A stretch of DNA of 64,000 bases from Paludibacteraceae bacterium (GTDB taxonomy: Bacteria; Bacteroidota; Bacteroidia; Bacteroidales; Paludibacteraceae): the NCBI GenBank assembly GCA_017450685.1, contig JAFSTB010000001.1, positions 78,805 through 142,804 on the forward strand, in the 5' to 3' direction. The translations under genes were made by a program, and so were the position numbers. Shown here piece by piece: positions 12,613-38,907 of this stretch. The notes under the pieces are model-generated. The model was given only the letters and a program-made list of their open reading frames with translations, made no database searches and was not told the DNA's origin. The stretch's first letter is position 1; each line of letters opens with the position of its first letter.

Positions 12613-13635
12613 TTATTGTTGTTCAACCACTTGCATCACGCGTTGTACTATTGTGTCGGGCGATATGTTGAGGCATCTGTAGTCGCGGAACTTACAAGCA
12701 CGGTTGCCATAGACTGAACATGGTCGGCATTTGAGTTCTCGTTGCAAACAGTCGTCTTCCTTCTGTCCGAACCCCAAGAAACCTAATGCCGGATGTGTGG
12801 CGCCCCATATAGAGAGTACACGCGTTCCTGCCAACGAGGCTAAATGCATATTGGCGGAGTCCATAGTGAGCATCAGCCTTAGTCCGCTCATTATCTCTAT
12901 CTCGGCTGCCATCGTCTGTTTGCCGGCTAATGAGGTGACACCCTTGTACTGCTTTTCCCAATTTTCCAAGACGGCTTTCTCTTTGTCGCCCGCACCAAAC
13001 AGATAGATAGGTTCATCCTTGTCCTGTAACAGTTCTGCCAATCGTCTCACCACCTCTTCCATTTTTTCAACAGGATAAATCTTTCCTTTGTGCGCGGCGA
13101 AGGGTGCTATACCTATACCCTTTTTTATCTTTTCGCTCACAGGCAACGTAAGAGCATTAGTATCAAGAGGCAGTCCTAATCTGGCAAAGACATTAGTATA
13201 TCGTTGAATGGTTGTTTGAATGGGCAGCAGTAGAGCGTGCTCGGATGGGTGCAACCGTGTTATATGATTCACTGTCAGCCATTTGCGCAGTCTGCCTTTG
13301 CGTATTGTTGCCACCTTTTTGCCGGCAAAGAGGAAGGCTCGGTCAATCCAATTGGAGCGTAGCACATCGTGCAGGTCGGCTACAGCGTCGAAGCGACGGT
13401 AGTCGATATCTCGTAGCAGTTGTTGCAGACCACTGATACCTTTATGCTTACCTTTGAGGTCGGCACCTATAAAATGGATATTTTGCGGCATTGACTGCCA
13501 TAGCGAGGTTGTATGCTGAGCGGAAAGCACAGAAAACTGAATATGAGGATATTGCAGTGCCACGCACCTTACCACAGGCACAGCCATTGCCACATCGCCG
13601 AGGGCAGAGAAACGGATGACAAGAACATTAGTCAT
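12613..13635 (-). CDS. Glycosyltransferase family 9 (ADP-heptose:LPS heptosyltransferase type)
   Basis: 340 residues. N-terminus NVLVIRFSALGDVAMAVPVV is the GT9 acceptor-side signature. The C-terminal half carries the donor-site segments GIAPFAAHKGKIYPVEKM, MSGLRLMLTMDSANMHLAS and LSIWGATHP. Heptosyltransferases add L-glycero-D-manno-heptose to Kdo2-lipid A on the cytoplasmic face. A Cys cluster near the C-terminus (RELKCRPCSVYGNRACKF...RCL) is common in Bacteroidota members and may bind a metal. The gene lies between DUF4254 (13 bases upstream) and the LPS kinase (3 bases downstream). Confidence 0.93.
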   Translation of the reverse strand: MTNVLVIRFSALGDVAMAVPVVRCVALQYPHIQFSVLSAQHTTSLWQSMPQNIHFIGADLKGKHKGISGLQQLLRDIDYRRFDAVADLHDVLRSNWIDRAFLFAGKKVATIRKGRLRKWLTVNHITRLHPSEHALLLPIQTTIQRYTNVFARLGLPLDTNALTLPVSEKIKKGIGIAPFAAHKGKIYPVEKMEEVVRRLAELLQDKDEPIYLFGAGDKEKAVLENWEKQYKGVTSLAGKQTMAAEIEIMSGLRLMLTMDSANMHLASLAGTRVLSIWGATHPALGFLGFGQKEDDCLQRELKCRPCSVYGNRACKFRDYRCLNISPDTIVQRVMQVVEQQ

Positions 13636-13648
13636 GGACAGAGGATAA

Positions 13649-14254
13649 TTATTTTTTGCCGTAAAGGACAGGGTTGAGCGACGGGTCGTTATACATCTTC
13701 ATCTGTTTGTACACTTTCATCACTCGGCGACCTGCCTGATAGTCTTCCAACAGTTGTGAAATAGAGGTGGTCATATCTGTGAGTTGCTCTTTGAGCACCG
13801 ACAGTTTGTCCACACATTTCTTATGTTGTTCTTCGCTCACATCTTTTCTATCCACTTGTTCTTGCATGTGGTATATTTTGACGTGCAGTATGCTGAGTCT
13901 GTCAATAGCCCAAGCAGGTGATTCGGTGTTGATACGTGCACCTTCCAGGGGTTGTACATCGCGATATTTCTCATAGAAATAAGAGTCGATACGTTCCACG
14001 AGGTCTGTACGGTCTTGGTTACTACGGTCAATGCGTCTTTTCAGAGCGAGTGCATCAACGGGGTCTATTTGCGGGTCGCGAATGATGTCCTCCAAGTGCC
14101 ATTGCACCACGTCTATCCAGTTCTTTTTGTATAGGTCATACTCGATGGTGCCTTCCTTATATGGGTTAGGCATAGGGGCATCCACATTATCGGTACGGTG
14201 GTAATCAACGACCGACTGCGGGAAGATCTGATTGCACAGTTCAGCAAAGTTCAT
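13649..14254 (-). CDS. DUF4254 domain-containing protein
   Basis: 201 residues, almost wholly alpha-helical and charged, matching the DUF4254 family (start MNFAELCNQIFPQSVVDYH; NWIDVVQWHLEDIIRDP; RIDRSNQDRTDLVERID). No signal peptide or membrane helix, so cytoplasmic. From general knowledge the family is common in Bacteroidota and Chlorobi next to GT9 heptosyltransferase genes, as here, but no biochemical function is established to my knowledge. A role as an accessory factor of LPS core synthesis is inference from position. It lies 13 bases after lptB. Confidence 0.88.
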   Translation of the reverse strand: MNFAELCNQIFPQSVVDYHRTDNVDAPMPNPYKEGTIEYDLYKKNWIDVVQWHLEDIIRDPQIDPVDALALKRRIDRSNQDRTDLVERIDSYFYEKYRDVQPLEGARINTESPAWAIDRLSILHVKIYHMQEQVDRKDVSEEQHKKCVDKLSVLKEQLTDMTTSISQLLEDYQAGRRVMKVYKQMKMYNDPSLNPVLYGKK

Positions 14255-14267
14255 AGTTGTATGATTT

Positions 14268-15026
14268 TTATTGATTAGTTTGTTCTGTTGGTCGGCTTTT
14301 CTTTTTCAGTTCGAAGTCACGTCCGAGGTAGCTTTTTCTCACTGTTGGGTTGGCAGCCAACTCTTCGGGTGTACCGTGGAAGAGTATTCGTCCTTCAAAG
14401 AGCAGATATGCTCGGTCGGTTATCATCAGCGTCTCGTCCACATTATGGTCGGTGATGAGTATGCCGATGTTCTTATCTTTGAGTTTCCACACCACATCCT
14501 GTATTTCTTGTACGGCTATTGGGTCCACGCCTGCAAAGGGTTCGTCCAGCATCACAAATTTGGGTTCTATAGCGAGGCAACGTGCTATCTCCGTGCGGCG
14601 TCTCTCACCGCCGGATAGCCGGTCACCGAGGTTATGACGGACGTGGTTAAGGTTGAATTCGGAGATGAGTTGTTCCAGTTTCTCTTTCTGATATTCGTTG
14701 GTGAAGGATGTCATTTCGAGTACGGAACGTATATTATCCTCTACGCTCATTTTGCGGAACACGCTGGCTTCCTGCGGCAGATAGCCTATTCCTAATTTGG
14801 CGCGTTTGTACATCGGGAAGTCGGTAATATCGATGTCGTTGAGGTATATATGTCCGCTGTTGGCAACCACCAGACCGGTGGTCATATAGAACGTTGTCGT
14901 TTTGCCGGCACCATTTGGGCCAAGCAATCCTACTATCTCACCTTGCTGAAGGTGGATGCTCACATCGTTAACAACCGTGCGTTTGCCGTAACGCTTAATC
15001 AAATGCTCTGTACGAAGAGTATCCAT
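14268..15026 (-). CDS. lptB: LPS export ABC transporter ATP-binding protein LptB
   Basis: 252 residues. LptB powers extraction of LPS from the inner membrane together with LptF and LptG. Walker A GPNGAGKT at 36-43, signature LSGGE at 137-141, Walker B MLDEP with D161-E162, and the switch His in ITDHN near 194. The long match to the LptB subgroup ([18 protein letters not shown], then EMT) separates it from other ABC ATPases. It starts 2 bases after the stop of the unknown membrane protein, so the two are probably coupled. The core glycosylation genes follow on the same strand. lptF and lptG are not in the window. Confidence 0.96.
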
Positions 15027-27927: not shown

Positions 27928-27981
27928 GGATATAAACAAAATCACGCTCACCTATGATGAGCGTGATTTTTGTTTATATCC
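27928..27981. terminator. Strong long-stem hairpin after rpmE
   Basis: A 23-base arm (27928-27950) pairs with 27958-27981 with a single bulged T, around a 7-base loop. The core is ATCACGCTCA / TGAGCGTGAT, flanked by AAACAAA/TTTGTTT. The T-rich outer arm can act in both directions, for the rpmE operon on + and for any minus-strand transcript coming from the nuclease operon. It also contains the stop of the gltS remnant. Confidence 0.8.
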
Positions 27982-28455: not shown

Positions 28456-29361
28456 CTAAATAGTCCAGTCGGCGGGATTGAAGTCTGCTTCTACGGTTTG
28501 TTGTATGCTATCAGGCAGTTGGAAGAAGAAGTCGATGTCTGTTATTGTCTCCACTTCATCTACCGACAGCATATATGTCATCAGGGGTTGATTACCTGGT
28601 TTATTAGGCATAACAAAGCCTATGGCAGTCCATGAGCCGTCGTTTTTTTGTCGGAGCAGCATTTTGAAGAAGGCTGTCGGCACCACTATTTTTCTTACTG
28701 TACCGATGGTTGTATTGGTGTCCTCTACTACGACAGGTCCGGCGGCGATATAGATCTTGTCGTATTTATATGCTAAGTCTCTCACCAATTCTTCGAGGTC
28801 TTTCCAGTCGCCGGCGTTGTTATTATGGTTTTGTGGGCAGATATTAGTCATATAGAACGACTCTTTCATAGCCTGTTGCGACCATCTCATATCAGCAGCC
28901 GGAGCCATGTGTCCACGGTCGTAGCCGGAGCCTGAATAGTCTTTTGATACGACGGGATCGCCCTTCACCAGCGGGTCGGGCAAGAACTTGTCGGTTCGGC
29001 TATACTCACCTTGCACTTCCGTCTTTTCCAAGCAATAAGCCACCCAATTGGGGATGTTATAGTCGGGGTTGAAACTAACGGTATAGGCGAGGTGCTCTAT
29101 ATATTGTTCGCTTTGGTTGCCGGTCAGTTGCGGTATTTCGAGGTTGTCAGGCAACAGGGTAGTGGCGGTTGGTTGAGGAGCGATGGGTAGTTGCTGTGTC
29201 GGTTCAGTAGTAATTGGTTGTTGTGTCGGTTGGTCTTCAAAAAGAGAATTGACAATGTCGGAAACATTATCTCTTGATATTTTTGTTTGTTGGATCATCA
29301 GTTCTGCACAAAGGAGCAGAAAGATGAGCAGAGCAAGGATGAGTGTAACTACCTTTTTCAT
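28456..29361 (-). CDS. DNA/RNA non-specific endonuclease (NucA type), exported
   Basis: 301 residues. One hydrophobic N-terminal segment (about 4-20) acts as signal anchor or signal peptide; then a Pro/Thr/Gln-rich linker (about 44-70), then the beta-beta-alpha-metal nuclease domain. Catalytic motif DRGHMAPAADM has H151 as general base. The Mg site lies in MTNICPQNHNNNAGDW. The final part FFFQLPDSIQQTVEADF is typical of the family. Such enzymes cut DNA and RNA without sequence preference outside the cytoplasm. It starts 10 bases after the stop of the transglutaminase-like gene and is therefore the last gene of the tubulin-like operon. Confidence 0.93.
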   Translation of the reverse strand: MKKVVTLILALLIFLLLCAELMIQQTKISRDNVSDIVNSLFEDQPTQQPITTEPTQQLPIAPQPTATTLLPDNLEIPQLTGNQSEQYIEHLAYTVSFNPDYNIPNWVAYCLEKTEVQGEYSRTDKFLPDPLVKGDPVVSKDYSGSGYDRGHMAPAADMRWSQQAMKESFYMTNICPQNHNNNAGDWKDLEELVRDLAYKYDKIYIAAGPVVVEDTNTTIGTVRKIVVPTAFFKMLLRQKNDGSWTAIGFVMPNKPGNQPLMTYMLSVDEVETITDIDFFFQLPDSIQQTVEADFNPADWTI

Positions 29362-29371
29362 TGTTGTTCGT

Positions 29372-31168
29372 TTATGCGGGGAGTAGTACTTTATCTTCGA
29401 AGGCTTCTATTTTCATTCCGTGAGCCATACCACCGATAAGGAAGTTGTCGCCTGTTGTTTCGCAGAAGATATATTGTTTATTATCAATGGTTACAGTTAT
29501 GTTTTGCAGTTTTTGTCGGTTGAGAGAGTCGAGTACGTTTTTTGTTACTTCGACAGCGATAGCAGCGTGTTGTTGTGTTCTTGAATACATAAATACTACA
29601 TTGTGTCCCATAAGGTGGAAGAGCATAGCAGCGAGCAGTGCTTTGGAGTTGCAGTCGGCTTCTTTGTCGTAGAGTGTTTCATCGGGGAAGCGTATATAAC
29701 TCTCGTTTTTGAGTATGCTTTGGCTATTGCGATTGGGGATGAAAGTGATGTTTGGTTCTTGCACGAAGTCTAAGGTGAACTGCAATTTATCTTCTTGGAG
29801 CAGGTTATTTTCTATTGCTTGTCGGTTGATATAGTGTACTATATACCTGAGTCGAGCATTGAGTGCCGTATGTTCGTTCAAGTAGTTGAACATCTCTAAA
29901 ATGGAGTGTTTGATATCTTTTCCGTCTCTTTGTGAGTAGAAGGGGTTGTTGCGTCGCAGTTCTTTTATGTCTTTGAGTGAGAAATAGAGAGAGAGGTTAC
30001 CATGGGTGGTATTGTCGGCGCGCTGGAAGCCTAAGTCCCAATCGTAGGTGCGTATGATGTCTCCCGGCGGGTTGATGTTGTCGTCTGTATCTTCTTTGTT
30101 GTCTTCATAGAGTGAGGTGGCTATTTCCCATGGTTGTGCATTGCGTTTGATGGTCATATTGACTATGATGCCGATGAGAATGGCGATAGCCATAGGGTTA
30201 TAGTTGAAGTCGTAGAGGATAGGCAGCAGATAGATAGCGGCGAGGGAGACGAAGATGATTATTCTGTCGGTTGTCTTGTGTCCTAAAGATTTGTTGAGCA
30301 GGTCTAAGACTGGTTGTATGGATTGCGATTTTTCTATGGAGTCGATTTTGACTTGTCTGACGAGAGCCCAAACCATCAAATAGAAGGCGACGAGCAGTTC
30401 GTAGGTGAGCGTATTGGTTTGAATAAGGTGTTGGTCAGCGAGTTTGAATGTTATGAGGTCGGCGAGTGAGAGGATGAGATAGAGTACACAATAGACCATA
30501 GAAGAGAGCAGTGCCGTATCTGACCAACTGTATGGTTGTGTTTTGTAGTTTTCGCAGTATTTGTTTTTGCTGAATTGTTGGTAGAAAGCGGCAAAGGCGC
30601 ATGCTCTGGCTTGGGGGGTATAGGTGGTGTTGGTGAAGTTTTTCAATCCTTTGTAGTATGCTAAAGCGATGGGTACGTGCTTGGTGTCGTCAGGATTACC
30701 GAGGTAAGCACATAGAACGGCATGCAGTTTGAATAGTCCTACTCTTTCGGGTTGTAGTGTTGGTTGTTCGGGTTGTGACGGTCGTGCTATATATCCGATG
30801 CGTTCAGGTTGCGAAGAGGGTGAGAACTGCTTATATACCCACCCTTCGGGAGTGATATATCCGTAAGATATATATATAGGTTTGTCGGTTTCTTCTTCGA
30901 AGTCGGAAGTTAGTAGTTCGACATGTGCGTTATCGTCTTGTTCTGTCATCCCAACTCTACCGATGGCTTTATCGGAGCCGGCACCGGCGAGGTATGCTTC
31001 GGTCCATTGGTTGCGGGCTGTGAAGTCCATATATGCCATTTCGCCGGCATCTGACTTACGTTGGATAGTAATCCAAACCCTCGTGTGCAAGGCTCTCCAC
31101 AGCACTTTGGCGAGCCAGATGGTGAAGAGAGCGGTGAGTATATAGATGAGTGTGGTGGTGGTAAGCAT
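29372..31168 (-). CDS. Multi-pass membrane protein with transglutaminase-like domain
   Basis: 598 residues. Hydrophobic segments: about 7-25, a group of four between about 228 and 358, and soluble parts between. The C-terminal part has a transglutaminase-like (papain-fold) site: EADCNSKALLAAML with the Cys nucleophile, QHAAIAVEV with the His, and YIFCETTG with the acidic residue. Such domains act as peptidases, amidases or cross-linking enzymes. The start shares one base with the stop of the 922-residue gene (TAATG), and the nuclease follows after 10 bases. It belongs to the tubulin-like operon. Target unknown. Confidence 0.85.
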   Translation of the reverse strand: MLTTTTLIYILTALFTIWLAKVLWRALHTRVWITIQRKSDAGEMAYMDFTARNQWTEAYLAGAGSDKAIGRVGMTEQDDNAHVELLTSDFEEETDKPIYISYGYITPEGWVYKQFSPSSQPERIGYIARPSQPEQPTLQPERVGLFKLHAVLCAYLGNPDDTKHVPIALAYYKGLKNFTNTTYTPQARACAFAAFYQQFSKNKYCENYKTQPYSWSDTALLSSMVYCVLYLILSLADLITFKLADQHLIQTNTLTYELLVAFYLMVWALVRQVKIDSIEKSQSIQPVLDLLNKSLGHKTTDRIIIFVSLAAIYLLPILYDFNYNPMAIAILIGIIVNMTIKRNAQPWEIATSLYEDNKEDTDDNINPPGDIIRTYDWDLGFQRADNTTHGNLSLYFSLKDIKELRRNNPFYSQRDGKDIKHSILEMFNYLNEHTALNARLRYIVHYINRQAIENNLLQEDKLQFTLDFVQEPNITFIPNRNSQSILKNESYIRFPDETLYDKEADCNSKALLAAMLFHLMGHNVVFMYSRTQQHAAIAVEVTKNVLDSLNRQKLQNITVTIDNKQYIFCETTGDNFLIGGMAHGMKIEAFEDKVLLPA

Positions 31169-33936
31169 TAGTCGTCTTGGTTAAGTATTTCGCGATATTT
31201 ATTTCTATCGTTGTATGCCTGAGCGAAGTGTTCTGCATCGAATAGTCGCAGCCAAACGGAAGAGGTATCGTTAGGGCATAAAGCCCAAAGCAGGAGCGAG
31301 GAAAGCGGTGGTTTTTCTGCCGACTTTTCGTTGTGTTGATAGACGCGTTGTTGTCGTATGGCGGTGTCGAAGTCTTCGGTGGGGAGGATACGGTTATAGG
31401 GCAGGTGTTCAAAACTGCGCCAGCGTGTGACGAAGATATATTTTTGGTAGATGATGTCGTAGGGTTCGATTTGGTATTTGGTATTAACCACAGGCAGGTA
31501 TGGTGCAGCGAGGTGACTTATTTCTTTTTGGTTGGTTTTGATGTCGGCATATTCGGTGTCGGCGGTGGAGGATATCTCTCCGTTGGGTGCCGCCATTTCG
31601 AGTATTGGTTTGAGCAGGTTTTTGCGTCCTGTCATACGGCTGTTCTCGCATAGTTTTTCGCCTACTGAACTATACTCACGCGGCACCATAACGTAAGCCA
31701 TATCTTCTGTCAGTCGTGCTTTGAAGAGTTCGATGTTTTTGTGCCATTGTTGTGCTTTTATCTCTTCTTGTTGTGTTTTTGAGAGCAGGATGGTATCGCC
31801 GGATGCAGTGTCGAAGGTTTTGATGAGGTTTTCAGTGAGATAGACATCGTTGAAGAGTATCATTATATCGCGGTGGAACTGATTGATAAGCATATAGTAG
31901 TCTTTTCTGCTCAGTTCGTTGAATGGTCGAGGTATATAATTGACTCTGACGAAGCAGTCGCGCATATCGTCGGCATGTAGTATCGGTTTTCCGGCGAACC
32001 GTCCTCCGTGCAGTGGTTGGTTGAACATTGTTTTTGGGCATTCAGTATCTCCTGTGTCGTTAAGAGTAGGGATGACTACATCTGCTGATATCTGTTCTGC
32101 TCGGTGTCGGTATTCTCCGGCGAGAGCGATTAGTTTGTCGTAGAAACCGTTTATTTCATTATCGATACGGTTGGCTATACGTGCGTATGCTTCGTGTAGG
32201 TAGTAAGCGTGCAGTCGGCGCACACACTGTTTTGTTTTGCGTTTCCAGAAGAGCCATCCTGTGAGTTGTATCATCATAGGCATAAGCATGATGAGCGCGG
32301 TCCATAGGATGGGATGCGAGGTGATGAGTTGCAGTATAGGTACAAAGATGAGCAGCATAAGCAGGCTCAGGAAGAAGGTGCGTGCTATATGGCTGAGCAG
32401 TGTATGTGTCTGACTCAGAGAGAGTCGGAGGTTATTGAGTGCTTCCTGTTTGAGTGCGTTTTGGTTGCGTGCCGACTTATTTCTCAGATCTTCGCGATAG
32501 GCATCGTGGTAGAACATAAAGTCTTCTTGTAGGCTGTCGGCGATGAGGTTATTGTAGAGTGGTGTCCAGAACCGTCGTTCGAGTGCGTTGTTTATCTGTT
32601 GGCGATTGCCTGCCAGTTTCTCTTGCATATTGCGGAAGAGGTATTTGATGATAGGCAGTCCTCCGTCGTTGGCTGATAGTTGTGATATTGTTCTGTCGAG
32701 GTTATCTTTGATATGGTGTTGTGCATCTTTGTAAGCACGTTGGCTGTCGGCTGCAATATGCGAGAGCATCGGGTTGGTTTTTTCTTCCACGAAGGCCACT
32801 ATCTCTTGCAGAAATCGTGCCGGGAAAAAGCGCAAGTAGTTGCGATAGAAGTCGCGTTTGAGTCTTCTGGAAGCCATATCGTTGATAGGGTGCGGCGATG
32901 GTTGTTCTCTTTCAGGTTCAACGATGGTTTGAGTGAAGAAAGGTGCTATATTGTTGAGTATATGCAGTTGTTCAGGGGCGTACTCATCTTTGGTGATGAG
33001 TTCCAAATGTTCGTTGTATTTTTCTTCCAGTCCTTCGCTTTTGAGGGAGTTGAGCAGTGAGCGTTCCAGTTCGTTACCGAGCATTCGGTCTTCGTGTTGC
33101 AGATCGAAGAAGACGGAAGCCATCCCAAGGCTGAGGTAGAAAGTGTCGGCGGCGCCTGTGCCTGATATGACGGGGTGAGTGATGTCGCAAGCCAGGTAGA
33201 GGTGTACGAGGCATTGGAGTATATATTCAGCCTGTCCTTTGCTATCGAGCAAGGGATAGACGTTTTCCGTTCTGTTCTGCACGTCTTGCCACAGGATGAC
33301 GTGGTCGTAACCTCTTATGGAAGAGATAGTGTGTTGCACATCTATCTCTTCGAGCATACGCCGGATACGGTGTCGTTCGCTTACTTTGCGTGAGTTGGTG
33401 TCGGATGGGAGGAAGAGCATTCCCATTATCTCCATTCCCTGATGTATATGGTTGGGTAGGATACGCTCTTTCTCTTTTTGTAGCACAGCCGCCATAGAGG
33501 CGAAGATATGTTGTGTGAGTTGTTCGGTGGCATCGCCTAAGACGATGATATTGATAGTCTGATATGGTTTGACATTACTTTGCCTGAGGTGTTTGAGGAA
33601 GCGTTGTCCTTCCTCCACCAGGTCGCTTTGCATCTCATATAGTCGGGTAGCGGTGAGTTGTGCATCGTCTTCGTTGATATCTTTCAGATAGTCTTTTACT
33701 TGCGAATACCACCAATAGTCGCCTTCGATGATGTTTCTTTGCAGTGCTTCTTCTTTTTCTATGTCTCTGATGAAGGACGAGGACGGATGTGTAACAGTCT
33801 CTTTTTCTATTGTTTGTTCATCTGTTGATGATTGTTGTTTGGATAGTCGCACGTGCTTAATCTGAGCGAGGAGATGTTGGAAATGAACTCTTCGCTCAGA
33901 TTGTGCAGTTATATCGATTATCCAAAGAGGCAGCAT
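31168..33936 (-). CDS. 922-residue membrane protein of unknown function in the tubulin-like operon
   Basis: No known family recognised. The N-terminus MLPLWIIDITAQ is strand-like. INIIVLGDATEQLTQHIFAS (129-148) and MEIMGMLFLPSD (168-179) resemble the strand-helix pattern of the tubulin-like protein upstream (where LVLTMYMPKVYID follows a similar helix), but without the glycine-rich nucleotide loops. Residues about 350-510 are helical and charged. Two membrane helices lie at about 518-540 and 544-565. A soluble C-terminal part of about 350 residues follows. TAATG overlaps join it to the genes on both sides, so stoichiometric expression is likely. It may link a cytoplasmic filament to the membrane; this is inference. 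Confidence 0.8.
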   Translation of the reverse strand: MLPLWIIDITAQSERRVHFQHLLAQIKHVRLSKQQSSTDEQTIEKETVTHPSSSFIRDIEKEEALQRNIIEGDYWWYSQVKDYLKDINEDDAQLTATRLYEMQSDLVEEGQRFLKHLRQSNVKPYQTINIIVLGDATEQLTQHIFASMAAVLQKEKERILPNHIHQGMEIMGMLFLPSDTNSRKVSERHRIRRMLEEIDVQHTISSIRGYDHVILWQDVQNRTENVYPLLDSKGQAEYILQCLVHLYLACDITHPVISGTGAADTFYLSLGMASVFFDLQHEDRMLGNELERSLLNSLKSEGLEEKYNEHLELITKDEYAPEQLHILNNIAPFFTQTIVEPEREQPSPHPINDMASRRLKRDFYRNYLRFFPARFLQEIVAFVEEKTNPMLSHIAADSQRAYKDAQHHIKDNLDRTISQLSANDGGLPIIKYLFRNMQEKLAGNRQQINNALERRFWTPLYNNLIADSLQEDFMFYHDAYREDLRNKSARNQNALKQEALNNLRLSLSQTHTLLSHIARTFFLSLLMLLIFVPILQLITSHPILWTALIMLMPMMIQLTGWLFWKRKTKQCVRRLHAYYLHEAYARIANRIDNEINGFYDKLIALAGEYRHRAEQISADVVIPTLNDTGDTECPKTMFNQPLHGGRFAGKPILHADDMRDCFVRVNYIPRPFNELSRKDYYMLINQFHRDIMILFNDVYLTENLIKTFDTASGDTILLSKTQQEEIKAQQWHKNIELFKARLTEDMAYVMVPREYSSVGEKLCENSRMTGRKNLLKPILEMAAPNGEISSTADTEYADIKTNQKEISHLAAPYLPVVNTKYQIEPYDIIYQKYIFVTRWRSFEHLPYNRILPTEDFDTAIRQQRVYQHNEKSAEKPPLSSLLLWALCPNDTSSVWLRLFDAEHFAQAYNDRNKYREILNQDD

Positions 33937-36900
33937 TAGCGGATGAACTTATGCACGGTGTCTAAGTCTTGTCGGAGGATATTGAAGAAGATGCTATACA
34001 GTCGTTTTTCTTCGTTTTGTGTAGTGTTCTTTTTCTTTTCGCTGAACTCTTTGAGCAGTGCTTCGTGCTTGGCTGTATAGCCTTGTTTGAGAACCGTTTC
34101 GCCTGTTGTCTGTCGTCCTTTGATGGTGACGCTATGACGCAGGATAGCCTGAATGAGGTTTTCGGTTGTCTCACCAAACCCGTAGTTATAGTACAGGTCG
34201 CAATACTTATTGAATCGTGTGGCGAAGTCGTTACCTTCTATTTCGAGGTACAGACTTCTGCCATCGGCTTCTGCTCGGAGCATTATCTTACCTGTCTGCG
34301 GATGTATTTGGAAGGCTTCTGGCAGGGCAATCTTAAAGGACTTGTCGTAGTCGCTGTAATACATTGTCTGCATATAAGCATTGGGGTCGTACTCATCGGA
34401 ATAGAAGAAGGGTTGCAATTCTGCGCTGAAGGCATTGAGAATCATCATCTTCACGAAAGAGTAGTGTTGCGGAAGAATATCGTAAGGCAGGTTGTCGAGA
34501 GTTATCTTATCGAGGAACTGTGCAAAGTCGTGGTGGAAGTGATATTTCTCACGGAAGGTGGCTTTGTCATAGACCATCTTTATAGAGTCGTAGATACGAT
34601 AGTCTTGCAGCGAGAGTCCGTATTTGGATTTGAGAACTAGTGCTGTGTCTTCGCTATCGGCTTTTTCGAAGCGGTGTTTGGGGTTACCTTTTTGGAAGCC
34701 GAGCATCTCTTCAGCCAAGTCTTCACTACCTGCGACAAACACTATATGTTCCTCTTTCTTCATCACGTCTATTCGGTTGGCGTTGTAACTGAAGAAGAGA
34801 GCGGGATTGAGACTGCGTCGCACCTCATCTTTCTCGTCGTTGGTGAGGTCGGCAAAGAAAGAGGATATTTTTTTGTTGTCCCACATCTCTTGTATGGTAC
34901 TGTCCTCGTGCATTTTCTTGTCTAAAATACGCACAGCCATAGCGAGGAAGTCCTCCACTATCTTTTCCGTACTGATATTGTTCTCCACCAGTTTGGGGTT
35001 GGCAAAGAAGCGCACATCTTCCGTTTTTTTCTGTTCGTCGGAGTTATTGTCTTTGGCATCGAGGAACATCACATACTGCCCTTTATACAATTCTTCGCGA
35101 GTGGTCTCATCGCCGGTGAGGTAGATATTTTTCTCTATGAATTTTCTGAGGTCCTCTCTGCGTGGTGTCTCTTCTTTATCTTCGTCGGCAGAGATAAGTT
35201 GTGTATACATTTTGGAGAAGATGTTGGCTGCTATCCATCCGTTGCCGTCGCATATACGCTTGAGTTGTGGCAGATAGACGGTAGTTACATCCATTGATGC
35301 TTCGCCAAACTCATTTGCCAGTTTGTGGTAGTGCGACACCATGTTTCTCGACATCTCGGCGGCTTTATCCATCATATTGGACACTTGTTTGAGCAGTTTA
35401 GCCATCTCGTCGTTTTTCTCGTCGGTGCAGAAGTCGCGTTTGAGGTCGTGTGCCCACTTGGCTATTTGCAGCGACACGAACTTTTCCACATATTCCGAAA
35501 GTGTCTGCAAGTAATCTTCAATCTGCTTTTTATTGTTTTTGGCTATTTTTTCTATTGTTGTGATGGTGGCTGCTTTTTCGCTCAGTTCTTGCAGTTCTGA
35601 GCGCATCTCTATAAGTGCTCTTTCTCTTGCGGCGATGGACTGTTCACCTTGTTCTTCACGTTTATACTCATCATACATAAAGCGTCTCACTTCGGTCAGT
35701 GCGTTCTGTGTATAAGCCAAACCGTGTTCACGGATAAGCACTTCCGTCTTTTTCCATATACCTTCGATGATGTTTTTTTTGTATTTATCTCGTTTCTCTT
35801 CAGCCCCTTCGGCAATGAATGTCTTTTCCACTTTGCCCAGGTCGGTACTGATGGTGCCAAACTCCAGCATATCGTCCATCTGTTCACTCTCGGTGTCGGC
35901 TTCCATTATGCGGTTCTGCACATTGCGTGCACTGCTGACAAAGCCGTGTGCAATAGAGGTGGAGACGTTAGGGTCTAACTCCTCGAAGAGGTTCATATAG
36001 AGCGTTTTAGTGCCTGACTTCTCAAACTTCGCCATTTTCTCGTCCTCGCACAGGAGCCAACTGCGCAACAGGTCACGTTTGAAGCGTGTACGTATGTATT
36101 TGGCATACTGTTCTTGCGGTTTTTGTAGCGACACGTATCCCATTGGCACAAGGAAATTGCTATGGTCACGTTCCATTATATCGTTCATATAGTTGTCTAT
36201 ATCAGAGCGGAAGGTGGCACCTGCTTTGCCGTTATGCAGGTGGTAGAGCATCTCTGCCGTATTGCGGTACATAGTGCGTGTAGTGCCTAAGGATGTACCT
36301 TTATCGGTCTGTATATCAACGGGTATGAGATAATAGAAGGGGCAATAACGCAGGTTGGAGTTAATGAGGTTATAGTCGTTTTGGAAGGCGAGGCGATGCA
36401 TCACCGTCATCTGTTTGGGCTCATAACTCATCTTCTTGAAGGCTTCCAGTTCGGCGAACACGCCAAAGGCGTTGAGTGTATATTTCTCTTCTGTGGAATT
36501 GCTATCGATATACACTTTAGGCATATACATAGTGAGTACGAGTTGCGGGTCGCCGTTGCCCACCACTTGGTGATGTATCTGATTGACGTGATAGAGTACG
36601 TCGTTGAAGATGCCTGAACCTGTACCGCCGAGTGTACTGCCCACTACCCAGTAGTAGATGATGCAGTCTTCACCGCCCACTGTTTTTACGTCGTTCAGAC
36701 CGGAGATAGCGGCTTGCAGTTTGCTTTGGAAGTCGGTGAGTGAGTGTGCGAAGGCGATACGCGATTTCATACGGAAAGCACCTGCACCGAAAGCCAACGG
36801 TTGGTCGGGTATCTTTACGGCGAGTTCGGGTGAGCAAGCCTCAAGGATACGCTTGTTGATAAGCGTATTAGGATCTTTCTTTGCCTCATAATAAATAGCT

Positions 36901-37181
36901 TGGGGGTTAGCGCGACCGAGGTTGATGAGGTCGGTTTGGGGGTTGATGAAAGGCACTTTACCCTGCTCAAAACTCTCGCGGTTGCGTTTGTTAGCCTCAT
37001 CTATATCGCGTTGGTCGGTATCGATAAAGAGGAAACGGTAACTGTCGTTCATTGCTTGCAAGCGGGTCTTGGAAGCCGTTGCCTCGGCAAAACGTTTCTC
37101 ATAGACCTTGGCTTTAATCTGTGACACGGTCTGACAACCACTACCACCGATACCAATAAAAATGTGTTTCTCGTTAGCCAT
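33936..37181 (-). CDS. Tubulin/FtsZ-like domain protein (large, bacterial)
   Basis: 1081 residues. The N-terminal about 250 residues carry the tubulin/FtsZ nucleotide-binding signature: FIGIGGSG at 8-15 (T1 loop), FIDTD at 52-56, FGAGAFR at 131-137 and GSTLGGTGSG at 181-190 (the tubulin GGTGSG T4 loop). This fits the Tubulin_2-type domain proteins. The remaining 800 residues are helical with coiled-coil-like stretches (about 480-620) and unknown function. No signal peptide or membrane helix, so cytoplasmic. GTP binding is likely; polymerisation is not proven by sequence. Second gene of the operon, 31 bases after the VWA gene. FtsZ proper is smaller, so this is not the cell-division FtsZ. Confidence 0.9.
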   Translation of the reverse strand: MANEKHIFIGIGGSGCQTVSQIKAKVYEKRFAEATASKTRLQAMNDSYRFLFIDTDQRDIDEANKRNRESFEQGKVPFINPQTDLINLGRANPQAIYYEAKKDPNTLINKRILEACSPELAVKIPDQPLAFGAGAFRMKSRIAFAHSLTDFQSKLQAAISGLNDVKTVGGEDCIIYYWVVGSTLGGTGSGIFNDVLYHVNQIHHQVVGNGDPQLVLTMYMPKVYIDSNSTEEKYTLNAFGVFAELEAFKKMSYEPKQMTVMHRLAFQNDYNLINSNLRYCPFYYLIPVDIQTDKGTSLGTTRTMYRNTAEMLYHLHNGKAGATFRSDIDNYMNDIMERDHSNFLVPMGYVSLQKPQEQYAKYIRTRFKRDLLRSWLLCEDEKMAKFEKSGTKTLYMNLFEELDPNVSTSIAHGFVSSARNVQNRIMEADTESEQMDDMLEFGTISTDLGKVEKTFIAEGAEEKRDKYKKNIIEGIWKKTEVLIREHGLAYTQNALTEVRRFMYDEYKREEQGEQSIAARERALIEMRSELQELSEKAATITTIEKIAKNNKKQIEDYLQTLSEYVEKFVSLQIAKWAHDLKRDFCTDEKNDEMAKLLKQVSNMMDKAAEMSRNMVSHYHKLANEFGEASMDVTTVYLPQLKRICDGNGWIAANIFSKMYTQLISADEDKEETPRREDLRKFIEKNIYLTGDETTREELYKGQYVMFLDAKDNNSDEQKKTEDVRFFANPKLVENNISTEKIVEDFLAMAVRILDKKMHEDSTIQEMWDNKKISSFFADLTNDEKDEVRRSLNPALFFSYNANRIDVMKKEEHIVFVAGSEDLAEEMLGFQKGNPKHRFEKADSEDTALVLKSKYGLSLQDYRIYDSIKMVYDKATFREKYHFHHDFAQFLDKITLDNLPYDILPQHYSFVKMMILNAFSAELQPFFYSDEYDPNAYMQTMYYSDYDKSFKIALPEAFQIHPQTGKIMLRAEADGRSLYLEIEGNDFATRFNKYCDLYYNYGFGETTENLIQAILRHSVTIKGRQTTGETVLKQGYTAKHEALLKEFSEKKKNTTQNEEKRLYSIFFNILRQDLDTVHKFIR

Positions 37182-37212
37182 AACTATTTATTATTTAGTG
37201 ATTTATTCTGTT

Positions 37213-38820
37213 TTATTTGCGTATTCGCAGTGTTACTATATGTGTTATAGCATCCACCCCGCTCCCACATTCGATGTCGAATCCTTTTTTCATTTGTCCG
37301 CCGTAGCGACCTATCAGTCCCTGTTTTTTGCTACCTGAGCGTGCGAATCCTTTTCTGGCTTTCCAGCGGAAGGCAGGTTTGCGTGTGAAGAGCAAAGGTG
37401 AGTGGGTCTCTTTCTCCACCGTTATAGCCCACGCCACGTCGGCTACATCGCAGCCGTTGGTACCTGTCTCACCTATGACAAGAGGTTTATTGCTGCTTAA
37501 CTTGAGGTTGACGGTGTCGCCAATCTGGTGCCCCAACGCATCATATATCTCCACTGTTCCGCGAAAGCGTTCGGTGGCGTTGGTCTTGGCAGCGCGCAGC
37601 ACCATAAGGATATACCAAAGGATAATGGCCACTATGATTGCCATTAGCCAGAAGGGCAGGATGAAAGTGAAGATCCACTTATCCACCGGTGCTTCCACTT
37701 CCGTCACGGGTTTAGCGATCCCCAACGCCGACAGTTCGTTGTCATAGTCAGTGGGTTGCTCTATGTGGAAGCGAATGGCAGACTTATAATGGTGGAAACC
37801 CCAATGGCGGTTTTTCAGTTGTCCGATGGTATTGGTGTTTTCTATTTCGTCTTTTAGTTGATAGGTTTTGTGGTACTCTTTGCCGATGATATAGAAGTCT
37901 TGGTCCACACATTCAGCCAGTGTTCGGATGTTAGGACAGAGTCGTGTCGGGTGCCAATTGGAGCGTCCTTTGATATTTCCGTCTATTGACACATGGAGGT
38001 CGGTATTCCAATCGGTGCTTTTGTTTTCCATTGTAACGATAGCACGCAGTTTGGTGGTCATGATATCGTTTTTGAGTCGTTCGAACCAATCCTTAATGGC
38101 TGATTGTGAGGTGTTCATCGACACTATCTCCAGTCCTTTATTCGGTTCTTCGCCTATCTGTCGGAACACGTGTTCTTGCAGTTGGTCGAGGCAATAGCCT
38201 TTGGCATGTCGGTCAACGGGCAGTTCCAATGCCACCACGCGTGTGTATAAGCCGTCTGTAACACCTAAGAAAGCGTCTTGCAGTTGCTTCTGTTCCTGTT
38301 CTGTCAGTTTTTTCTCGCCTTGTACGTCGTTGCGAAAATCGCCTACTTGGATGATAACGACCACAGGATAGTCTTTTCTGTTAGCCCGTATAACATCCAC
38401 TATAGCCTCTTCGGCGGCGTAGATATTGGTATAAGCCTTAAACTGTTTGGTATAGTTGGGGCTGGTATATAGTTTGTCTATGTCTTTATTGAGACTGTTC
38501 TTAAAGTCGGTGTTGATGATACCCAGGAATCCGGGCATTGTTGATTTGGCTTCGGTGCCGTAAGGAATGACCGTCACGCGGTCGCCTGTCGGCAGAGCCT
38601 GAAAGAAAGGTTTGAGTGCCGGTATGACTTGATTGGCGTACTTGTTCATTGTGCCGGACACATCGATAGCGAAGATATAGTGAGCGGCATACTTGCCTAA
38701 CTCGTCACGGTAGAGGTTAGTGAGCAGGGGATAGTTATTTTCGAGGTTAGCCAAGGGGTCATCGGCTCTTAACATTATCCCTGTAAGCAGAAAAAGGAGT
38801 ATGGCGGCGAGTTTTTTCAT
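37213..38820 (-). CDS. VWA-domain membrane protein
   Basis: 535 residues from ATG 38820 (MKKLAAILLFLLTG), preferred over a longer reading because it starts with a clear signal peptide. The exported N-terminal part has a von Willebrand A domain with complete MIDAS: D53-S55-T57 (IDVSGTM), T131 and D161 (QVGDFRND). One membrane helix (about 387-411, FILPFWLMAIIVAIILWYIL) then places a basic C-terminal domain of about 120 residues in the cytoplasm. VWA domains bind protein ligands through a metal ion. It could sense or recruit a periplasmic partner for the tubulin-like protein, which it precedes in the operon. First gene of that operon. Confidence 0.88.
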   Translation of the reverse strand: MKKLAAILLFLLTGIMLRADDPLANLENNYPLLTNLYRDELGKYAAHYIFAIDVSGTMNKYANQVIPALKPFFQALPTGDRVTVIPYGTEAKSTMPGFLGIINTDFKNSLNKDIDKLYTSPNYTKQFKAYTNIYAAEEAIVDVIRANRKDYPVVVIIQVGDFRNDVQGEKKLTEQEQKQLQDAFLGVTDGLYTRVVALELPVDRHAKGYCLDQLQEHVFRQIGEEPNKGLEIVSMNTSQSAIKDWFERLKNDIMTTKLRAIVTMENKSTDWNTDLHVSIDGNIKGRSNWHPTRLCPNIRTLAECVDQDFYIIGKEYHKTYQLKDEIENTNTIGQLKNRHWGFHHYKSAIRFHIEQPTDYDNELSALGIAKPVTEVEAPVDKWIFTFILPFWLMAIIVAIILWYILMVLRAAKTNATERFRGTVEIYDALGHQIGDTVNLKLSSNKPLVIGETGTNGCDVADVAWAITVEKETHSPLLFTRKPAFRWKARKGFARSGSKKQGLIGRYGGQMKKGFDIECGSGVDAITHIVTLRIRK

Positions 38821-38866
38821 AGAGTTGGAGTAAAGGAAGGAAAGAAAGAAGAGTATTATTAAAAGA

Positions 38867-38894
38867 TAGAGACAGCCACGCAAGGCTGTCTCTA
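38867..38894 (-). terminator. Terminator hairpin of the transhydrogenase operon
   Basis: AGAGACAGCC (38868-38877) pairs perfectly with GGCTGTCTCT (38884-38893) around a 6-base loop, with one more A-T pair outside. On the minus strand the stem is followed by ATCTTTTAATAAT. It lies 14 bases beyond the pntB stop and 47 bases before the VWA gene start. It therefore separates the transhydrogenase transcript from the tubulin-like operon. Confidence 0.75.
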
Positions 38895-38907
38895 CCGTTG
38901 TATCTTA

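What the first reader, a model, noticed from the sequence alone, without database searches (positions are those of the whole stretch)
28456..38820. Five-gene tubulin-like / VWA / membrane transglutaminase / nuclease operon
Five minus-strand genes: VWA membrane protein, 1081-aa tubulin-like protein, 922-aa membrane protein, transglutaminase-like membrane protein and NucA-type exported nuclease. Two gene junctions are TAATG overlaps and the others are 10 and 31 bases, which indicates one unit; a terminator upstream (38867-38894) isolates it. Seen in the sequence: tubulin loops GIGGSG and GGTGSG, a complete MIDAS, a Cys/His/acidic transglutaminase site and the DRGH nuclease motif. Known: comparative genomics (Makarova and Koonin 2010, as I recall) proposed FtsZ-like families acting with VWA proteins in membrane remodelling. 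Inferred: a GTP-driven cytoplasmic filament is coupled through the 922-aa and VWA proteins to an envelope-facing protease or cross-linker and a nuclease. That might mean remodelling, stress response or defence. I know of no experimental description of this gene set.
Basis: partly seen in the sequence, partly recalled or inferred. Interest (0 to 1): 0.85.

Follow-up and report, generated by a model that had tools for sequence, protein, structure and literature searches.

The report
Mobile tubulin–VWA–protease membrane operon
A gut bacterium carries a four-gene unit in which a tubulin-like GTPase is paired with a von Willebrand-type receptor, a membrane-hairpin protein and a protease-like membrane protein; related units occur in other gut bacteria, it seems to have moved between species, and it looks more like an accessory conflict or sensing device than housekeeping, but what it does is untested.

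Summary
In 42 loci (window plus 41) VWA, tubulin and the 922-aa protein keep order and strand, apart from contig ends and one masked ORF; the transglutaminase-like gene (TGL) follows in 35. This is a conserved core. The nuclease is not: it is adjacent in 2 of 42, while 33 of 41 carrier genomes have such a gene, mostly elsewhere. The usual fifth gene, absent here, is zinc-protease-like (25 of 42; HExxH in 15 of 24). Charge distribution puts TGL's catalytic domain in the cytoplasm (33 of 33 rows), not the envelope. The unit has spread horizontally (AU p 0.0008). TIR genes lie within 10 kb of the tubulin gene in 5 of 41 genomes, 0.49 expected; one relative has an FGE-sulfatase domain inside TGL. 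The tubulin belongs to the known Tubulin_2/FtsZl1 family (Makarova and Koonin 2010); I found no description of this protease-bearing Bacteroidales form. Best reading: a tubulin-scaffolded, membrane-spanning protease relay of conflict-system type.

The parts
37213..38820 (-). VWA protein, 535 aa: N-terminal signal-like segment, VWA domain with MIDAS, one C-terminal TM (383-401) and a tail of about 130 aa; probably a periplasmic receptor
   Evidence: Pfam VWA_2 5.9e-06; metal-site residues in 38 rows; present in 41 of 42 loci. Side of the tail not resolved by charge (12 of 38 rows).
33936..37181 (-). Tubulin_2 / FtsZl1-family protein, 1081 aa, no TM found; nucleotide-binding core
   Evidence: PF13809 5.4e-34, PF00091 2.2e-05 (under cut-off); G10, G12, G13, G15, D54-T55-D56, G185-S189, D194, N228, N237 invariant in 38 rows.
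31168..33936 (-). 922-aa protein (P922): two-TM hairpin (520-538, 543-561), both large halves predicted cytoplasmic; N-terminal domain possibly a degenerate tubulin fold
   Evidence: Homologue in 42 of 42 loci, 33 close and 9 divergent; hairpin charges 32 of 32 rows; weak tubulin-profile match; the divergent type carries a C-terminal VWA with intact metal site in 8 of 8 rows aligned.
29372..31168 (-). TGL: transglutaminase-like membrane protein, 598 aa, five predicted TM, predicted cytoplasmic catalytic domain C506/H534/E570
   Evidence: DUF553 0.0049 here, 20 of 34 members at E<=0.01; topology 33 of 33; Cys in 24 of 34 loci.
28456..29361 (-). NucA-type nuclease with N-terminal hydrophobic segment, 301 aa; co-directional, 10 bases downstream; passenger or locally recruited gene, not core
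   Evidence: PF01223 3.7e-56; adjacent in 2 of 42 loci; its tree pairs it with a host genome where it lies away from the unit.
38865..38896 (-). terminator-like hairpin after pntB, upstream of the unit
27938..27970 (.). two-way terminator-like hairpin between the nuclease and rplI

Best explanation
A horizontally mobile, membrane-anchored tubulin–VWA–protease relay of conflict-system type. SHOWN from sequence: a conserved gene core; intact nucleotide loops in the tubulin; intact VWA metal site; a two-TM coupling protein with both halves in the cytoplasm by charge; a multi-TM transglutaminase-like domain in the cytoplasm by charge; in many relatives a further protein with an HExxH zinc-protease-like site and an N-terminal hydrophobic anchor. 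INFERRED: the periplasmic VWA receptor (with the metalloprotease where present) perceives an envelope event. The signal passes through the P922 hairpin to the GTP-dependent tubulin scaffold, whose assembly or disassembly brings the cytoplasmic transglutaminase-like protease to a target: host proteins (shutdown), invader proteins, or a partner effector such as a neighbouring TIR protein. In this window the metalloprotease is absent and an exported nuclease sits behind the unit.
For: Conserved order and strand. Tubulin divergence tracks P922 (rho 0.92, n = 30) and TGL (0.84, n = 25) but not host valS (0.02, n = 30). Horizontal transfer: AU p 0.0008. Rare and patchy: 12 of 150 relatives match, five of them full-length at 61% or more, own genome included; 1 of 395 phylum genomes, the own one, with the P922 profile. 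VWA diverges fastest (median identity 37%, TGL 39%, P922 41%, tubulin 61%, 20-21 loci). TIR within 10 kb of the tubulin gene in 5 of 41 genomes, 0.49 expected, P 1e-4. In L066 a TIR protein (TIR_2 2.6e-17, ThsB_TIR 2.9e-06) starts 6 bases after TGL. FGE-sulfatase domain in the TM1-TM2 loop of L051 TGL. Same themes in Kaur 2020: tubulin–vWA GTPase systems, peptidase–NucA systems, FGS domains (passages and section 29).
Against: No PADLOC hit for the five proteins. No TIR_2 hit in the window's own 86%-complete genome. Counting from the tubulin start alone, only 3 of 41 genomes have a TIR hit within 10 kb (0.43 expected, P 0.008); the distance was chosen after seeing the loci, and relatedness is ignored. 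No match in plasmids, phages or viral contigs. Ten of 34 loci lack the catalytic Cys, so proteolysis is not always the output. Polymerisation, GTPase and protease activity are untested; no structure could be predicted.
Confidence: 0.42

Rival explanations
1. Envelope or inner-membrane remodelling machine, as Makarova and Koonin proposed for FtsZl1 operons: the tubulin deforms or organises the membrane and the hydrolases trim envelope proteins.
For: Family context and membrane partners; TM segments in VWA, P922 and TGL; a zinc-protease-like protein with N-terminal anchor in many relatives.
Against: Rare and patchy in its genus, horizontally moved, TIR genes nearer than expected. Recurrent GTPase, kinase and OmpA partners were not found by a motif scan of 275 flank ORFs in 40 loci (two weak GTPase-motif, two weak OmpA-motif, no kinase-motif ORFs; window's own flank not in this scan).
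Confidence: 0.25
2. Envelope-stress signal transduction by regulated proteolysis, not defence: VWA and metalloprotease sense damage, TGL cleaves a cytoplasmic regulator.
For: Same topology evidence; two protease-like proteins, none of the 24 loci with both genes having both sites broken, though two loci without the metalloprotease also lack the Cys.
Against: Outside the core only small gene clusters recur (at most 7 loci), none an obvious dedicated regulator; one cluster, in 3 closely related loci on the opposite strand, looks like a primary sigma factor (named by eye, no call). Housekeeping signalling would be expected to be less patchy.
Confidence: 0.2
3. Surface behaviour or motility-related cytoskeleton, by analogy with Synechocystis Sll0445, a Tubulin_2 protein whose mutant is impaired in phototaxis.
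For: Section 9 of PMC9880817. In one locus, L047, the genes upstream on the other strand look like GldK, GldL, GldM and PorP/SprF (named by eye, no family search).
Against: Different partners in Synechocystis (FtsA-domain and DivIC-domain proteins); the gliding-like neighbours were noticed in 1 of 42 loci.
Confidence: 0.07
4. [quoted passage not shown]
For: Same slot, 9-10 base gap and orientation in window and L045, whose tubulins are not sisters; metalloprotease gene absent in one and without HExxH in the other; Kaur peptidase-NucA systems. In G543, host of the window's sister tubulin L026, one of two nuclease genes lies about 4 kb past TGL, but on the opposite strand and only 42% identical.
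Against: Found in 33 of 41 carrier genomes, mostly elsewhere, and its tree follows hosts; in L037 a gene that looks like uracil-DNA glycosylase (named by eye, no call) starts 17 bases behind the unit, so tight spacing is weak evidence.
Confidence: 0.15

Closest known systems
FtsZl1 / Tubulin_2 (PF13809) vWA operons (Makarova and Koonin 2010, PMC2875224)
   Same: Tubulin_2 protein of about 1000 aa next to a vWA gene and TM proteins. Bacteroides caccae is among the species in their Figure 1 alignment (legend seen; which family it stands for is not said there).
   Different: No linked GTPase, kinase or OmpA recurs; has P922, TGL and the metalloprotease-like protein. Their unlabelled families A1-A2 and B1-B9 (Additional File 6, not seen) might include some of these.
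GAP1-N2 GTPase-centric systems with tubulin and vWA (Kaur 2020, PMC7159879)
   Same: Tubulin-domain protein with C-terminal extension, vWA protein with TM and extracellular vWA, sometimes a second vWA protein (as in the divergent P922 type).
   Different: The tubulin theme is described as restricted to Firmicutes and Actinobacteria; no recurrent GTPase seen here; GAP1 and FNIII parts could not be tested directly.
NucA-peptidase systems (Kaur 2020, System 3)
   Same: Endonuclease_NS nuclease beside a membrane peptidase-like protein in this window.
   Different: Peptidase is transglutaminase-like, not trypsin; the nuclease is not conserved with the unit.
DUF553 / Transglut_core peptidase-like proteins
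   Same: C/H/E catalytic pattern.
   Different: Five TM helices and an extra N-terminal region; sometimes two catalytic domains, one degenerate.

Membership tests
Tubulin_2 / FtsZl1 | N-terminal Tubulin_2 domain over cut-off | tested here: met
   118.4 bits, cut-off 27
Tubulin_2 / FtsZl1 | T1 and T4 nucleotide loops intact | tested here: met
   invariant in 38 rows
Tubulin_2 / FtsZl1 | adjacent vWA gene | tested here: met
   41 of 42 loci, the 42nd cut by a contig end
Tubulin_2 / FtsZl1 | coiled coil then helical C-terminal domain | not tested
FtsZl1 membrane-remodelling operon | recurrent linked GTPase, Ser/Thr kinase or OmpA gene | tested here: not met
   motif patterns only, 275 flank ORFs of 40 loci: two weak GTPase-motif, no kinase-motif, two weak OmpA-motif ORFs, none recurrent
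Canonical FtsZ/tubulin | FtsZ_C or Tubulin_C domain | tested here: not met
   absent from Pfam hits up to E 1
GAP1-N2 tubulin system (Kaur 2020) | DO-GTPase, GAP1 and FNIII proteins | tested here: inconclusive
   no recurrent GTPase-motif ORF; no GAP1 profile was available and FNIII was not searched
NucA-peptidase system (Kaur 2020) | NucA nuclease plus trypsin-like peptidase as core | tested here: not met
   no trypsin domain in the five proteins; nuclease in 2 of 42 loci
Transglutaminase-like peptidase (DUF553) | profile match and C/H/acid residues | tested here: met
   window protein is under the cut-off, but 20 of 34 homologues (window counted) match at E<=0.01, best 4.4e-08; residues present
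Known defence systems (PADLOC 2.0.0) | profile hit for any component | tested here: not met
   0 hits for 5 proteins
Any of these | GTP hydrolysis, polymerisation, proteolysis | not testable with these tools
   needs bench work

The most novel reading that the evidence does not exclude
P922 is a membrane-anchored pseudo-tubulin: its N-terminal domain keeps the tubulin strand order but has lost the GGTGSG loop. With the catalytic tubulin it would form a heteromeric filament tied to the inner membrane that gates two proteases on opposite sides of it: a tubulin-based transmembrane immune relay. Basis: the profile match to a diverse Tubulin_2 set scores 31.5 (E 0.0034, 116 columns, T4 strand in register) and 0 of 149 block-shuffled controls reach it (maximum 25.8). 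Against: the score drops to 19.9 (E 0.14) when this family's own tubulins are left out of the set; the narrower comparisons before it were not significant (best E 0.06), nor was the divergent P922 type (E 0.08); whole-profile comparison found nothing.
Probability: 0.2. Interest if true: 0.85.

Novelty: new variant of a known kind. Interest (0 to 1): 0.6.

Why it matters
Makarova and Koonin predicted in 2010 that this tubulin family remodels membranes; in my searches I met one experimental report on a member (Synechocystis). This form offers a compact, testable core with enzyme-like partners whose active sites give a readout, and a five-gene version occurs in a named strain, Phocaeicola barnesiae DSM 18169 (L058: VWA, tubulin, divergent P922 with VWA, TGL, HExxH protein; its first VWA and its TGL score weakly or not at all in Pfam). 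If the relay reading is right, it would link a bacterial tubulin to proteolytic signalling across a membrane and to TIR-type conflict systems.

Tried and rejected
Empty-site test: pntAB and rplI exist in related genomes, but gene order is too shuffled to define an empty site: inconclusive. In G579 the nuclease lies 3.7 kb from pntB but in the opposite orientation and without the unit.

Reciprocal loss of the two proteases (8 loci with HExxH but no TGL Cys, 9 with TGL Cys but no HExxH, 7 with both, none of 24 with both broken) looked striking, but on the tree it rests on about 4 and 2 changes and the pair test cannot reach significance; two loci (L049, L052) lack the metalloprotease and also the Cys. 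Not claimed.

Metalloprotease loss as a recent event here: rejected, because all six members of the window's tubulin clade lack it.

P922 versus VWA by profile, and PDB sequence searches with tubulin, P922, TGL and metalloprotease profiles: nothing significant; the metalloprotease profile met collagenases at E 0.04-0.14. Charge test of the VWA tail: undecided (12 of 38). Divergent-P922 profile in 393 genomes of the order: 10 matches, all partial and over the VWA part. Tubulin_2 in 14 of 295 genomes of the order; their contexts were not studied. Rfam (gathering thresholds) and tRNA: none in the window.

Print searches: (open-licence PubMed Central only, listings read); no experimental description of this gene set was in the listings. 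The name CASTOR/POLLUX that I gave in my notes to channel-like neighbours is recalled; Pfam gave no hit for L032 and a weak Slo-like_RCK hit (0.015) for L043.

Mended on re-check: one search mixed two distance measures (0.40 expected, P 3.5e-5). One search repeats it consistently: gene interval 5 seen, 0.49 expected, P 1e-4; tubulin start only 3 seen, 0.43 expected, P 0.008. One search used 21 loci; one search adds L043, L051 and seven divergent units. I lowered confidence from 0.45 to 0.42 for the weaker TIR figure and raised the motility rival to 0.07 for L047.
Full report
What is there. Five minus-strand genes occupy 28456-38820 of a 1.81-Mb, 37-contig draft genome, 85.6% complete (window = contig 20, 78805-142804). 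Start, stop and junction claims hold: two TAATG overlaps, gaps of 31 and 10 bases, a terminator-like hairpin upstream and a two-way one downstream. The longer TTG start of the VWA frame lies inside the upstream hairpin, so the ATG at 38820 was used. GC of the unit is 0.464 against 0.475 for the window.

Is it a conserved unit? A scan of one genome per species for 84,980 species, with a ten-row tubulin alignment, gave 41 loci. Forty of 41 record titles name Bacteroidota, 39 of them MAGs or 'uncultured' by title; about 25 of 41 name a herbivore host. One is the strain record of Phocaeicola barnesiae DSM 18169 (L058) and one MAG is titled Fibrobacter (L043). The scan relied on two short peptide patterns and leaves out records near the window's own, so it is a lower bound. 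L033 and L035 are two contigs of one MAG. ORF calling and clustering over these 41 plus the window gave: VWA 41 of 42 (in L028 the contig ends just before it; in L031 and L052 it is cut), P922 family 42 of 42 (33 close, 9 divergent), TGL 35 of 42, a metalloprotease-like fifth gene 25 of 42. Core order and strand are kept in 42 of 42. The ORF picker listed the tubulin in 41 of 42; in L051 it was masked by a longer antisense frame, but tblastn places it. The nuclease is adjacent in 2 of 42 (window, L045; 69% identical).

The nuclease. Endonuclease_NS genes occur in 33 of 41 carrier genomes, mostly elsewhere. In a tree of 21 nucleases (the window's and 20 of the 44 other hits) the window copy pairs with that of G579 (97/92), which lies on another contig than that genome's unit. 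So it looks like a host gene standing behind the unit. It stands in the same slot in L045, whose tubulin is in another clade, and in G543 (host of L026) one nuclease gene lies about 4 kb past TGL on the other strand. Recruitment is therefore possible but weakly supported, since L037 has an apparent housekeeping gene 17 bases behind the unit.

The fifth gene usually present. It is a 331-361-aa protein with an N-terminal hydrophobic segment. HExxH is present in 15 of 24 copies (L035 left out). Pfam gives DUF2268 'predicted Zn-dependent protease' in 3 of 24 and Peptidase_MA_2 in 2 of 24 at E<=0.01; the L058 copy is over the DUF2268 cut-off (25.5 against 23.6). The window's tubulin clade (window, L026, L027, L032, L034, L053) lacks it.

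Topology. Mapping the window's five TM segments of TGL onto 33 rows (window counted; L035 and those under 570 aa left out), lysine and arginine total 439 on the predicted inner side and 69 on the outer, with inner above outer in 33 of 33. The C-terminal catalytic domain is then cytoplasmic. The P922 hairpin has both halves inside in 32 of 32 rows of the close type (277 against 84). For the VWA tail the same count is undecided (12 of 38; 82 against 88). TM calls are by hydropathy only.

Active sites. The tubulin keeps its nucleotide loops in the 38 rows aligned. The VWA keeps its metal site (38 rows, L035 and those shorter than 500 aa left out). TGL: a catalytic Cys in at least one domain in 24 of 34 loci (L035 left out, window counted). 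The 10 without it have Ser and lie in one tubulin clade of 11, whose eleventh member, L041, has the Cys. Many relatives have two TGL domains, often one degenerate; the window has one, with C506/H534/E570.

Mobility. Only 12 of 150 relatives match the tubulin (own genome included), 5 of them full length at 61% or more. valS was used as host yardstick over 41 genomes. The hosts of L029, L030, L033, L045 and L050 are closer to the window's host (74-77% in three; L029 and L050 in two partial matches each, 70-84%) than that of L026 (68%). Yet the window's tubulin is 72% identical to L026 and 61-63% to those five. A clade of the window with those five is rejected (AU p = 0.0008, quick tree; group chosen before the tree but after the identities were seen). 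Over the 30 loci with a near full-length valS match (L027, L029, L034, L039, L041, L050, L056, L057, L059, L062 had none or a partial one; L035 left out), tubulin identity to the window follows P922 (rho 0.92, n = 30), TGL (0.84, n = 25) and VWA (0.63, n = 29), not valS (0.02). In the 21 close-type loci first used the figures were 0.84, 0.78, 0.16 and 0.32 (p 0.15); with L043 and L051 added, valS reaches 0.40 (p 0.06). Plasmid, phage and viral-contig searches found no carrier.

Context. TIR_2 hits over cut-off number 76 in 29 of 41 genomes, none in the window's own. Five loci (L032, L053, L063, L065, L066) have one within 10 kb of the tubulin gene; 0.49 were expected, P 1e-4. Measured from the tubulin start only, three do (0.43 expected, P 0.008). 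The cut-off was set after seeing the loci; relatedness and contig ends were ignored. Two of the five (L032, L053) are in the window's own tubulin clade. In L066 the TIR protein starts 6 bases after TGL. RyR-domain genes lie close in L032 and L065. L051 TGL carries an FGE-sulfatase domain (9.4e-29, residues 384-577) between TM1 and TM2, the loop predicted to be cytoplasmic. Against a defence-only picture, L047 has gliding/type IX-secretion-like genes upstream on the other strand (by eye).

Comparison with print. Makarova and Koonin 2010 (abstract and parts 1-3 of 5 read) described FtsZl1 with vWA, GTPase, kinase and OmpA partners and proposed membrane remodelling; a reviewer offered transport or signalling instead. 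Kaur 2020 (passages and section 29 read) described tubulin–vWA GTPase systems restricted to Firmicutes and Actinobacteria, NucA–peptidase systems, and FGS-domain effectors. PMC10907252 (passages) proposes such C-type-lectin domains as antigen sensors. PMC9880817 (passages and section 9) reports impaired phototaxis in a Synechocystis Tubulin_2 mutant. PMC9871819 (passages) notes the sparse distribution of Tubulin_2; PMC8195603 (passages) gave background only. None of what I saw describes this protease-bearing Bacteroidales form; supplementary files could not be read.

Verdict. A real, conserved, mobile gene unit; a new variant of the Tubulin_2–VWA kind. The four-gene core is firm. The protease relay and conflict role are inference at about 0.42. 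The pseudo-tubulin idea for P922 is a lead that a structure must decide.

Noticed in passing
G000:C30:13262-14329, locus L025:3707-11360: A second, different Tubulin_2 operon in the same genome: 1030-aa tubulin with GYF_2 domain, a MORN-repeat protein, and proteins with N-terminal hydrophobic segments, one with a Cds6_C match; its tubulin scores higher with PF13809 than the window's.
   Followed up: partly
L051:8922-12197 and 13243-14505: TGL with an inserted FGE-sulfatase domain, followed (after the metalloprotease) by an LRR protein with a sub-cut-off TerB match.
   Followed up: partly
L063:2815-7563, L065:17016-22520, L066:17604-19671, L032:19416-23217, L053:16011-19073: TIR genes, some with RyR, channel-like or weakly PP2C-like neighbours, beside the units.
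   Followed up: partly
L047:2606-7460: Genes that look like GldK, GldL, GldM and PorP/SprF (type IX secretion/gliding; named by eye) upstream of the unit on the other strand.
   Followed up: no
L028:6721-9346; L060:5226-7969: TGL and P922 each split into two overlapping ORFs, frameshift or assembly error; left as they are.
   Followed up: no
L029, L030, L033, L035, L045, L050, upstream of VWA: A conserved 296-298-aa protein without Pfam match upstream of the unit in one tubulin clade.
   Followed up: no
L028, L029, L030, L044, L047, L053, L055, downstream end of the unit: A small lipoprotein-like protein (141-170 aa) in the slot behind TGL or the metalloprotease; not seen behind any of the 15 HExxH copies, some of which are near contig ends.
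   Followed up: partly
L036, L038, L049, upstream on the other strand: A shared block of housekeeping-like genes, one resembling a primary sigma factor (by eye): three closely related contexts, probably shared descent.
   Followed up: no
L043: Locus titled Fibrobacter sp., with the tubulin nested among Bacteroidales and its best valS match only 39% identical to the window's; transfer between phyla or misnamed MAG.
   Followed up: no
L065:7494-8284 and L066:7484-8275: Three small conserved ORFs directly upstream of VWA in two divergent units.
   Followed up: no
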